Source: Halorussus halophilus (lineage in GTDB: Archaea; Halobacteriota; Halobacteria; Halobacteriales; Haladaptataceae). Taken from it: 64,000 nucleotides of DNA. Shown here piece after piece: positions 38,061-61,245 of the stretch (positions are counted from its first letter, which is position 1; the number at the start of each line of letters is the position of its first letter). Where the stretch lies: NCBI RefSeq assembly GCF_008831545.1, contig NZ_CP044523.1, positions 2,480,001-2,544,000 on the forward strand. Reading direction: 5' to 3'. Made by a program: the position numbers and the translations under genes. The notes beneath the pieces were generated by a model. That model was not told the origin of the DNA. It was given only the letters and a program-made list of their open reading frames with translations, and did not search any database.

Positions 38061-38110
38061 GTCAGCACAACCGACGTTTCCTTGTAGAAAGCCCCCGCCC
38101 GGTCGCGGTC
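38061..38110 (-). repeat. Intergenic repeat module C, right half only
   Basis: Minus strand GACCGCGACCGGGCGGGGGC then TTTC and AAGGAAACGTCGGTTGTGCT. It matches the right end of the complete copy at 58729-58777 with few differences, but the GAAAGGGG left arm is missing in the following 100 bp. It precedes module A copy 5 in the same orientation, as at 58.7 kb. Confidence 0.65.
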
Positions 38111-48585: not shown

Positions 48586-48646
48586 GGAAACGCTCGGTGC
48601 GACAAACCACCTGCAACAGGTCGATCATGCAAGCCATCGTCTGGGC

Positions 48647-48930
48647 GGACTGAAAGGGGTCAGTCACGCGAATAGCGAGGGACGGAGTCCTTCGGGCCGT
48701 TCGCGCGGCAGTACCGCGAGAAGACGGAGTGAGAGTAGCCTCGGAAATCGCCCGCCCGCGAACGAAGTGAGCAGGAACGTCTTCCGGTGTCCGGTCGCGT
48801 TTATGTAGTCGTCTCGGCGGCCCCTATCGACGCGAGTGTTGTCTTCACGGGCAGAACGAGTGAAGGCTCGTCGGAACTTGCTCCGTCGGCGCGACGCGCC
48901 GTGAACGGGCGGGAGCTTTCGAGGACGTGT
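48647..48930 (+). repeat. Module C, degenerate copy
   Basis: Left end GGACTGAAAGGGGTCAGTC (48652-48670) and right end GGGCGGGAGCTTTCGAGG (48907-48924) correspond to the two ends of the complete copy at 58.6 kb, but the outer stem is degraded and the interval is longer. Module A copy 8 follows in the same orientation. Confidence 0.45.
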
Positions 48931-48992: not shown

Positions 48993-49110
48993 CACGAAGG
49001 AGAAACCGCACTGCGACCGCTCCGCACCGGCCACACACCTCCCCAACCGACTGCGGTCCTCGGGACCCCAGTCCCTCGCGCGAGTCGCTCCTGCCGTCGC
49101 TCCCGCGCGC
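48993..49110 (+). repeat. Intergenic repeat module A, copy 8
   Basis: ACGAAGGAGAAACCGCACTG, GCACCGGCCACACACCTCCC, CAACCGACTG, then a shortened hairpin region GTCCTCGGGACC and CAGTCCCTCGCGCGAG. In the convergent gap before the flavin reductase. Confidence 0.7.
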
Positions 49111-58541: not shown

Positions 58542-58630
58542 GGGGAACGACGGCGACACTCGGCCGACCAAGCGACCGCAAGTAAGAGGACACAAACCAC
58601 CGGAATCGCCCGGCCGACCAATCAGTAGGG

Positions 58631-58777
58631 TGGGACTGAAAGGGGCCGCGCGCTCGCGTTCATCGTGGTCGGTGCACGGGCACTACTCGCGCCGGGCGTT
58701 GTGAGAGGCGCGAGTATCCCGCGCCAGCGACCGCGAGCGCGCGGGGGCTTTCGAAGAAGAAACGTCGGTCGTGCTGG
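58631..58777 (+). repeat. Intergenic repeat module C, complete copy
   Basis: A long stem: left arm GAAAG-GGG-CCGCGCGCTCGCG (58638-58658) pairs with right arm CGCGAGCGCGCGG-GGG-CTTTC (58732-58752), that is 5 bp, a symmetric GGG/GGG internal loop, then 13 bp. The enclosed loop holds a 9-bp hairpin ACTCGCGCC/GGCGCGAGT (58685-58715). The tail is AAGAAGAAACGTCGGTCGTG. Related pieces occur at 38061-38110, 48647-48930 and 61071-61175. The layout looks like a structured RNA. Confidence 0.75.
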
Positions 58778-58804
58778 TTGGGTTGGAGAAGTAGTAGTGA
58801 GGCG

Positions 58805-58957
58805 AGTTACTCCCGAAACCAAGGAGAGACCGCACAGCACCGCACCGCGAGCGCCACATCCTCCCCAACCGACTGTGTTACTCAGGTTCGGAAGACGCGC
58901 CACTGCGCGTCTTCCGCGTTGCGTTACTCGTCCCTCGCGCGTTTCTCGCGCGCCGAG
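58805..58957 (+). repeat. Intergenic repeat module A, copy 9
   Basis: GTTACTCCCGAAACCAAGGA, GAGACCGCACAGCACCGCAC, CCACATCCTCCCCAACCGAC, CAGGTTC, hairpin CGGAAGACGCGC-CACT-GCGCGTCTTCCG (58889-58916), GTTACTCGTCCCTCGCGCG. The most complete plus-strand copy. The remainder to 59122 carries only the promoter region of the HTH gene. Confidence 0.85.
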
Positions 58958-59122
58958 TATCCATGAAGAACCCCGAATTAGCTTGGTCGGCGACAGCGAG
59001 CGTACAGGGGCGTTCGAGGCGGCCACAGTTCAACCGAAATCCAGAGAAATTCGTCACCTTCGTCTCAGCACGAAATGCTTTTGTGGCTCCTGACGTATGG
59101 TGGGCAGTAGCAAGGGGAACCG

Positions 59123-61034: not shown

Positions 61035-61070
61035 GAAAAGAAAGTGCAGATGCCAACGTGACTACTACTT

Positions 61071-61175
61071 CGAAAGCCTCGCTCGCTGCGAGTTTCAGAA
61101 GAAGTCGAAGCCGCTGCGAACACGCCGAAAGCCCCCGCTCGCTACGAGTTTCAGAAGAAATCACTGCGAACACAC
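61071..61175. repeat. Tandem 50-55-bp repeat related to module C
   Basis: Two units (61071-61125 and 61126-61175). Each begins CGAAAGCC(C/T)C, includes CTCGCT(G/A)CGAGTTTCAGAAG and ends CTGCGAACAC; a third start CTGAAAGTCCCACC follows. On the minus strand each unit ends AGCGAGCGGGGGCTTTC, the right end of module C. It fills the convergent gap after the MFS gene. Confidence 0.7.
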
Positions 61176-61245
61176 TGAAAGTCCCACCCTGTCGTTTGCG
61201 TCCTCTTACTCGCAGTGGGAGCGATTCAGTCGCCCGGCCAGACCC

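What the first reader, a model, noticed from the sequence alone, without database searches (positions are those of the whole stretch)
58631..58777. Module C: long stem with a symmetric GGG/GGG internal loop, a candidate structured RNA
GAAAG-GGG-CCGCGCGCTCGCG pairs with CGCGAGCGCGCGG-GGG-CTTTC over 73 nt of loop that itself contains a 9-bp hairpin. The GAAAGGGG and GGGGCTTTC ends are retained, at least in part, at 38061-38110, 48647-48930 and 61071-61175, although the stems differ. The conserved unpaired G triplets are unlikely to persist by chance and could bind protein or form a G-rich motif.
Basis: seen in the sequence. Interest (0 to 1): 0.6.

Follow-up and report, generated by a model that had tools for sequence, protein, structure and literature searches.

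The report
Haloarchaeal dispersed hairpin repeat family
The stem found at 58.63-58.75 kb is one copy of a seemingly undescribed, class-wide family of hairpin-forming repeats scattered between genes of salt-loving archaea; its fold and its unpaired G triplets are kept by compensating mutations, yet its positions come and go between sister species, so it behaves like a small passively spread element rather than one gene's switch.

Summary
The stem at 58632-58752 is one copy of a dispersed repeat ("module C"): 56 near-exact 5' ends in this 4.45-Mb haloarchaeal genome against 0 for the reversed control, all intergenic. A covariance model made from one of its two inner forms hits 81 of 106 Halobacteria genomes. 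Pairing is real: 22 of 41 pairs (inner form A) and 22 of 30 (form B) show double-sided changes. The outer GAAAG/CTTTC helix is CAAAG/CTTTG in another genus. The GGG/GGG mismatch and a 5' GGGTGGG tail are retained far above background. G.T exceeds A.C mismatches 2.8-3.5 fold on one strand, so that strand folds as single-stranded DNA or RNA.

Copies examined sit upstream of intact core promoters, are absent from the serS and hisS loci of nearly all congeners, and appear or vanish as blocks of 300-550 nt between sister species. Rfam has no match. Copy number does not follow Y1 transposases, and copies do not cluster at Y1 or TnpB genes. Best reading: a non-autonomous mosaic hairpin repeat, REP/BIME/PATE-like in behaviour, with unknown mobiliser. 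A transcribed RNA is not excluded.

The parts
58632..58752 (+). module C, full copy (inner form A), 121 nt
   Evidence: matches the form-B covariance model at E 6e-8 although it is form A
58628..58634 (+). 5' tail G tracts GGGTGGG, first and second of four G tracts
   Evidence: G tract just 5' of GGGACTG in 43 of 56 genome copies against 5% of other GGGAC sites
58638..58642 (+). outer helix 5' arm GAAAG, pairs with 58748-58752 CTTTC
   Evidence: paired in 97.8% of cells; CAAAG/CTTTG in another genus
58643..58645 (+). 5' GGG of the symmetric internal loop
   Evidence: sequence; alignments A1 and A2
58646..58658 (+). long stem 5' arm, pairs with 58732-58744
   Evidence: 7 of 13 pairs with changes on both sides
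58668..58680 (+). middle helix 5' arm, pairs with 58718-58731
   Evidence: 7 of 13 pairs with changes on both sides
58684..58693 (+). inner hairpin 5' arm, pairs with 58707-58716
   Evidence: 8 of 10 pairs with changes on both sides
58707..58716 (+). inner hairpin 3' arm
58718..58731 (+). middle helix 3' arm
58732..58744 (+). long stem 3' arm
58745..58752 (+). 3' GGG of the loop and outer helix 3' arm CTTTC
   Evidence: at least 3 G directly before the CTTTC partner in 47 of 56 copies against 12% of CTTTC sites
58592..58627 (+). module A: upstream small inverted-repeat unit (CCACCGGAATCGCCCGGCCGACCAAT type), tandem in many copies
   Evidence: upstream sequences of 56 copies
58753..58806 (+). 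tail between modules C and D
58807..58960 (+). module D (TACTCCCGAAACC..CACAGCACCGC..CCTCCCCAACCGACTG..GTCCCTCGCGCG), a separate repeat often next to C
48646..48920 (+). second copy of C in the window, enlarged by inserts, 3' end GGGAGCTTTC
38085..38097 (-). remnant of C: 3' arm only (GGGGGCTTTC), followed by module D (38026-37953)
61070..61189 (-). remnant of C: fused 5' tail GGGTGGGAC-TTTC (61177-61189) and two 3'-arm copies (61127-61137, 61070-61081)

Best explanation
The sequence is one copy of module C, the core of a dispersed, non-coding mosaic repeat of Halobacteria. SHOWN: (1) it is a high-copy intergenic family found across the class; (2) one strand is constrained to fold into a long stem with a fixed GGG/GGG mismatch, an outer 5-bp helix and a GGGTGGG tail; (3) the inner part is exchangeable (two main forms, nested mini-hairpins, deletion remnants); (4) copies are present in one species and absent at the orthologous site of a sister species, as blocks of C with module D and/or other pieces, without damage to core promoters. 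INFERRED: C spreads as a non-autonomous element. A trans-acting protein recognises the single-stranded hairpin, with the G tracts and G/G mismatch as the recognition mark, and moves or copies the block, most easily into long promoter-side gaps; copies then decay by deletion between the G tracts and by insertion of other hairpins. The mobiliser is unknown; the data give no support for an IS200/IS605-type (Y1) enzyme.
For: Copies. Only intergenic in 56 of 56. Fold and covariation. Strand asymmetry G.T:A.C 39:11 (form A) and 107:38 (form B), with the structure derived without G.U pairs. Retained G tracts and the switch of the terminal outer pair from G-C to C-G. Absence at serS in 16 of 17 congeners (one degenerate copy) and at hisS in 17 of 17, with conserved core promoters. 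Occupied against empty sites in species about 74-95% identical at the flanks: 458 nt against 22 nt, 310 against 58, 540 against 44, 565 against 47, 473 against 82; one locus with a decayed remnant. Nested insertions and deletion derivatives. Precedent in Haloquadratum of transposase-free palindromic repeats that move although their IS200 transposases are broken, and of small repeats inserting into palindromes: PMC3119063.
Against: No exact insertion boundaries or target-site duplications could be read, because the empty sites hold unrelated short spacers. No transposase gene family recurs beside copies, copy number does not follow Y1 transposases (Spearman -0.08, p 0.52), and copies are not enriched at TnpB or Y1 genes (2 hits in 166 kb, about what copy density alone gives). 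Some positions seem older (EndA gene in several Natrialbaceae, tsr3-like gene in two congeners). The complex inner loops of form B look more like a folded RNA than a simple transposon end.
Confidence: 0.55

Rival explanations
1. Module C is a multi-copy structured non-coding RNA of about 120 nt (or a part of 3' UTRs) that binds a protein; the folded RNA is what selection sees.
For: Strong covariation, strand-specific G.T excess and conserved internal-loop sequences in form B (GACGYAAGCACCGCA / GAGGAGCGCAGCGAG). Some lineages have a TTCARATA box about 40 nt upstream.
Against: Copies lie upstream of the next gene's core promoter; in divergent contexts no upstream gene would transcribe them; no common promoter motif; positions turn over between sister species; no Rfam match.
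Confidence: 0.25
2. Module C is a DNA-level regulatory or architectural site: four conserved G tracts (GGGTGGG..GGGG..[stem]..GGGG) form a G-quadruplex with the stem as its long third loop, stabilised by the molar potassium of haloarchaeal cytoplasm, and act as an insulator or protein site near promoters.
For: All four G tracts conserved. A minimal copy, GGGTGGGACTGAAAGGGGCGAGGG, is a canonical quadruplex and folds better so than as a hairpin (-8.4 against -4.0 kcal/mol). Mild bias towards pointing at the downstream gene, 43 of 56 here. G-quadruplexes have been reported in Haloferax volcanii cells (abstract of PMC12873603).
Against: GAAAG/CTTTC pairing is kept and covaries, which competes with or constrains a quadruplex. 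Only 2 of 16 short copies are predicted to prefer it (the program cannot model a long hairpin loop). Position turnover argues against an essential site.
Confidence: 0.15
3. The element is the end, or a relic, of an IS200/IS605 or IS1341 (TnpB) transposon, i.e. an ordinary PATE.
For: Palindromic, transposase-free, high copy, nested insertions, as PATEs in Haloquadratum (PMC3119063).
Against: No association with Y1 or TnpB genes; several genomes with 36-70 copies lack Y1 altogether.
Confidence: 0.04
4. Quasi-palindrome artefact: intrastrand template switching makes and perfects hairpins with no selection.
For: Would generate compensatory-looking arms inside one genome.
Against: Would also erase the GGG/GGG mismatch, which is retained in most copies, and does not explain the class-wide unpaired motifs, the dispersal or the G.T over A.C excess.
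Confidence: 0.01

Closest known systems
PATEs and SMRs of Haloquadratum walsbyi (PMC3119063)
   Same: Transposase-free palindromic intergenic repeats of haloarchaea, tens of copies, insertion of one repeat inside the palindrome of another, deletion derivatives, presence/absence between close strains.
   Different: PATE palindromes match IS605/IS1341 transposon ends; C shows no such link. C has a fixed GGG/GGG mismatch, exchangeable inner domains and spans the class. Sequence identity with published PATE families could not be compared because supplements were not readable.
Bacterial REP/BIME elements with TnpA_REP (RAYT)
   Same: High-copy extragenic hairpins, mosaic arrangement with other motifs in either orientation, a conserved 5' tag next to an imperfect palindrome.
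   Different: No GTAG/GTGG-type tag at the foot of a 20-40-nt hairpin; the core is about 110-120 nt; TnpA_REP subclasses were not seen in archaea (PMC6006769); copy number is independent of Y1 genes here.
Pneumococcal BOX elements
   Same: Modular (conserved ends, variable inner modules), dispersed between genes (from my own knowledge).
   Different: Unrelated organism; no sequence comparison made.
Structured non-coding RNA families of Rfam 15
   Same: Pervasive covariation and conserved internal loops.
   Different: No family matches at gathering threshold in the window, and none at the element at E 1 in eight copy-bearing loci.

Membership tests
REP/BIME (REPtron) | GTAG/GTGG tetranucleotide next to a short (20-40 nt) hairpin | tested here: not met
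   5' tag is GGGTGGGACT and the hairpin core is mostly 100-125 nt; REP definition from PMC6006769 and PMC3733652
REP/BIME (REPtron) | cognate single-copy TnpA_REP gene flanked by the repeat | tested here: not met
   no C motif beside Y1 genes in 30 loci, and several high-copy genomes have no Y1 gene
REP/BIME (REPtron) | many extragenic copies combined with other motifs in mosaic | tested here: met
PATE (IS605-derived) | near-terminal palindromes shared with IS605/IS1341 transposons of the host | tested here: not met
   2 hits in 166 kb around 30 TnpB and 22 Y1 loci, not above copy density
PATE (IS605-derived) | strain- or species-specific presence without target duplication | tested here: inconclusive
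   presence/absence shown; boundaries too diverged to judge target duplication
MITE | perfect terminal inverted repeats matching a resident transposon | tested here: not met
   ends are GGGTGGGACTGAAAGGGG / GGGGCTTTC with a retained GGG/GGG mismatch; match to resident DDE transposons not tested
Rfam families | covariance-model score above the gathering threshold | tested here: not met
Structured RNA (generic) | covarying helices on one strand | tested here: met
Structured RNA (generic) | transcript | not testable with these tools
   no expression data
G-quadruplex | four G tracts of at least 3 within loop limits | tested here: inconclusive
   tracts conserved, but loop 3 is usually a long hairpin

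The most novel reading that the evidence does not exclude
Module C is a class-wide single-stranded nucleic acid fold of a new kind: a G-quadruplex or G-rich knot clamped between two helices (GAAAG/CTTTC and the long stem), specific to potassium-rich haloarchaeal cytoplasm, recognised by an unknown haloarchaeal protein that mobilises or reads thousands of copies in Halobacteria.
Probability: 0.15. Interest if true: 0.85.

Novelty: new variant of a known kind. Interest (0 to 1): 0.6.

Why it matters
It is a large structured repeat family, present in about three quarters of the sampled Halobacteria genomes and seemingly undescribed. Its mode of spread has no candidate enzyme, which echoes the open question left by the Haloquadratum PATEs and SMRs that move without an intact transposase. 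The covariance model, the occupied/empty site pairs and the retained G motif make that question testable. It also explains many odd stems that scans will keep finding between haloarchaeal genes.

Tried and rejected
Rfam at gathering and at E 1: nothing at the element. Y1 transposase (PF01797) as mobiliser: no correlation and no flanking copies. TnpB/IS1341 ends or omega-RNA: no enrichment. A recurrent gene beside copies: on chromosomes only a few small clusters, none a transposase. On plasmids 7 of 8 inspected copies lie about 450-1100 nt upstream of a divergent OB-fold DNA-binding protein gene; I read this as descent of one plasmid locus, not as the partner of the whole family. Phage records: no match. 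Literature search for the conserved 14-mer and for haloarchaeal REP/BIME papers: none found that describes it. A CRISPR-repeat likeness of GGGACTGAAAG and an origin-recognition-box likeness of the A repeat were considered from memory and not tested. The orientation bias towards the downstream gene is clear in this genome (43:13) but weaker elsewhere (84:48), so I do not lean on it.

Full report
WHAT IS THERE. The element runs from 58632 to 58752 on the + strand: GGGACT, outer helix GAAAG/CTTTC, symmetric GGG/GGG internal loop, 13-bp stem, middle helix and a 10-bp inner hairpin. As a single sequence its folding is only modestly unusual (z -2.1, 7 of 200 shuffles as good), so the case rests on relatives.

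A FAMILY. GGGACTGAAAGGGGC with at most one mismatch occurs 56 times in the 4.45-Mb genome; the same pattern read backwards occurs 0 times. I fetched and read all 56. None is inside a predicted gene. The usual layout is: module A (tandem inverted-repeat units), GGGTGGGACTGAAAGGGGC, a variable stem-loop, GGGGGCTTTCGA, a tail, often module D (..CCTCCCCAACCGACT..), then the core promoter and the gene. The 18-mer GGTGGGACTGAAAGGGGC (up to one mismatch) occurs in 39 of 59 related genomes. The form-A inner module and A repeats recur in named Halorussus loci (L085, L123, L138), so the window is probably from Halorussus (inference).

TWO INNER FORMS, ONE FRAME. Form A (the window's own) and form B (..GACGYAAGCACCGCA..GAGGAGCGCAGCGAG..) share the outer frame. 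For 18 form-A copies of this genome, 94.5% of cells pair, 22 of 41 pairs have changes on both sides, and the covariation score is 0.307 against 0.133 shuffled and at most 0.068 when slid. For 30 form-B copies from many genera: 93.0%, 22 of 30 pairs, 0.521 against 0.148 and at most 0.094. The base just inside the GGG loop is mostly C opposite G, or T opposite A. In another genus (G058) the outer helix is CAAAG/CTTTG in 10 of 10 copies, with the G tracts kept. A covariance model of form B matches 81 of 106 Halobacteria genomes (37 of 45 genera), many at the scoring ceiling of 36 candidates, and it also picks out the window copy at E 6e-8.

WHICH STRAND FOLDS. With helices derived without G.U pairs, the sense strand shows 39 G.T against 11 A.C cells in form A and 107 against 38 in form B. 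A fold under selection on one strand predicts this; a symmetric double-stranded site does not. Cells are not independent events, so I give no p-value. It does not separate RNA from single-stranded DNA.

THE G TRIPLETS. In 43 of 56 copies a further GGG lies 0-3 nt 5' of GGGACTG, against 5% of other GGGAC sites, and 47 of 56 have at least GGG directly before the CTTTC partner, against 12% of CTTTC sites. The 5' tract and the 3' tract were not part of the search pattern. Four G tracts are therefore kept. Two of 16 short copies are predicted to prefer a G-quadruplex; the tool cannot model one with a long hairpin as a loop. The quadruplex is a possibility, not a result.

POSITION AND TURNOVER. Gene contexts of the 56 copies: 22 divergent, 31 tandem, 3 convergent. 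Where I looked, the core promoter of the downstream gene lies between the element and the start codon. Upstream of serS the element is present here, as a degenerate copy in one congener, and absent in the other 16; upstream of hisS only this genome has it; the TATA-containing promoters are conserved throughout. In the G058 genus, blocks of reversed D, C and tail occupy 310-565 nt at sites where sister species have 22-82 nt between the same genes, and one sister keeps a decayed remnant. I conclude that copies are probably gained as well as decayed; for single loci gain and loss cannot be told apart.

WHO MOVES IT. Y1 transposase counts do not follow copy number (Spearman -0.08, p 0.52, 59 genomes), and G011 (56 copies), G035 (70), G052 (36) and G058 (58) have no Y1 gene detected. 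Around 30 TnpB and 22 Y1 genes the model finds 2 copies in 166 kb, close to background density. TnpA_REP proteins have not been seen in archaea (PMC6006769). On plasmids, 7 of 8 inspected copies lie beside a conserved locus with an OB-fold DNA-binding protein, best read as common descent of that locus. The mobiliser is unknown.

MECHANISM. Shown: family, fold, strand, G tracts, intergenic placement, turnover. Inferred: spread by a trans-acting activity that recognises the single-stranded hairpin. The closest behaviour known is that of PATEs and SMRs in Haloquadratum, which also move without an intact IS200 transposase and nest within palindromes (PMC3119063). Membership of the PATE, REP and MITE families was tested and defining features were not met, so I file it as a new variant of dispersed hairpin repeats, not as a member of those families.

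LIMITS. No expression data, no strain-level pairs and no exact boundaries. The 5' 15-mer was an ascertainment filter, so its own conservation is overstated; the 3' end, the tail, the stems and the G058 genus are free of that filter. Literature was searched only in an open-access library.

Noticed in passing
window 58807-58960, 49038-49053, 38026-37953 (-), 45680-45601 (-): Module D, a second class-wide intergenic repeat with its own hairpins, found on either side and in either orientation relative to C.
   Followed up: partly
L034 and upstream regions of most copies: Module A: tandem units of about 31 nt (CACCGGAAACGCCCGGTGACACAAAC), each a small inverted repeat, 5' of C in the window's genus. 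It resembles the core of archaeal origin recognition boxes from memory; not tested.
   Followed up: no
L227 2530-2960, L233 2450-2950, L234 2450-2950: Haloarchaeal plasmids of several families share a conserved non-coding stretch of about 450 nt with long hairpins next to an OB-fold DNA-binding protein gene and one copy of C; it could be a replication, partition or transfer region.
   Followed up: partly
L013, L077, L086, L099, L111, L120: Short nested hairpins (TTCGAAAGGCGC..GCGCCTTTCGTGATGAC and CGAGAGAGC..GCTCTCTCG types) recur inside the loops of C in several genera, like the small mobile repeats that target palindromes in Haloquadratum.
   Followed up: partly
L083, L087, L096, L097, L099: Head-to-head pairs of C with 5' ends about 20-30 nt apart, with a dyad such as TTGGTCAACCAA between them in some.
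   Followed up: no
L055, L067: A minimal copy of C lies upstream of a tsr3-like gene in both this genome and a congener that otherwise has no near-exact copy, so some positions are old.
   Followed up: no
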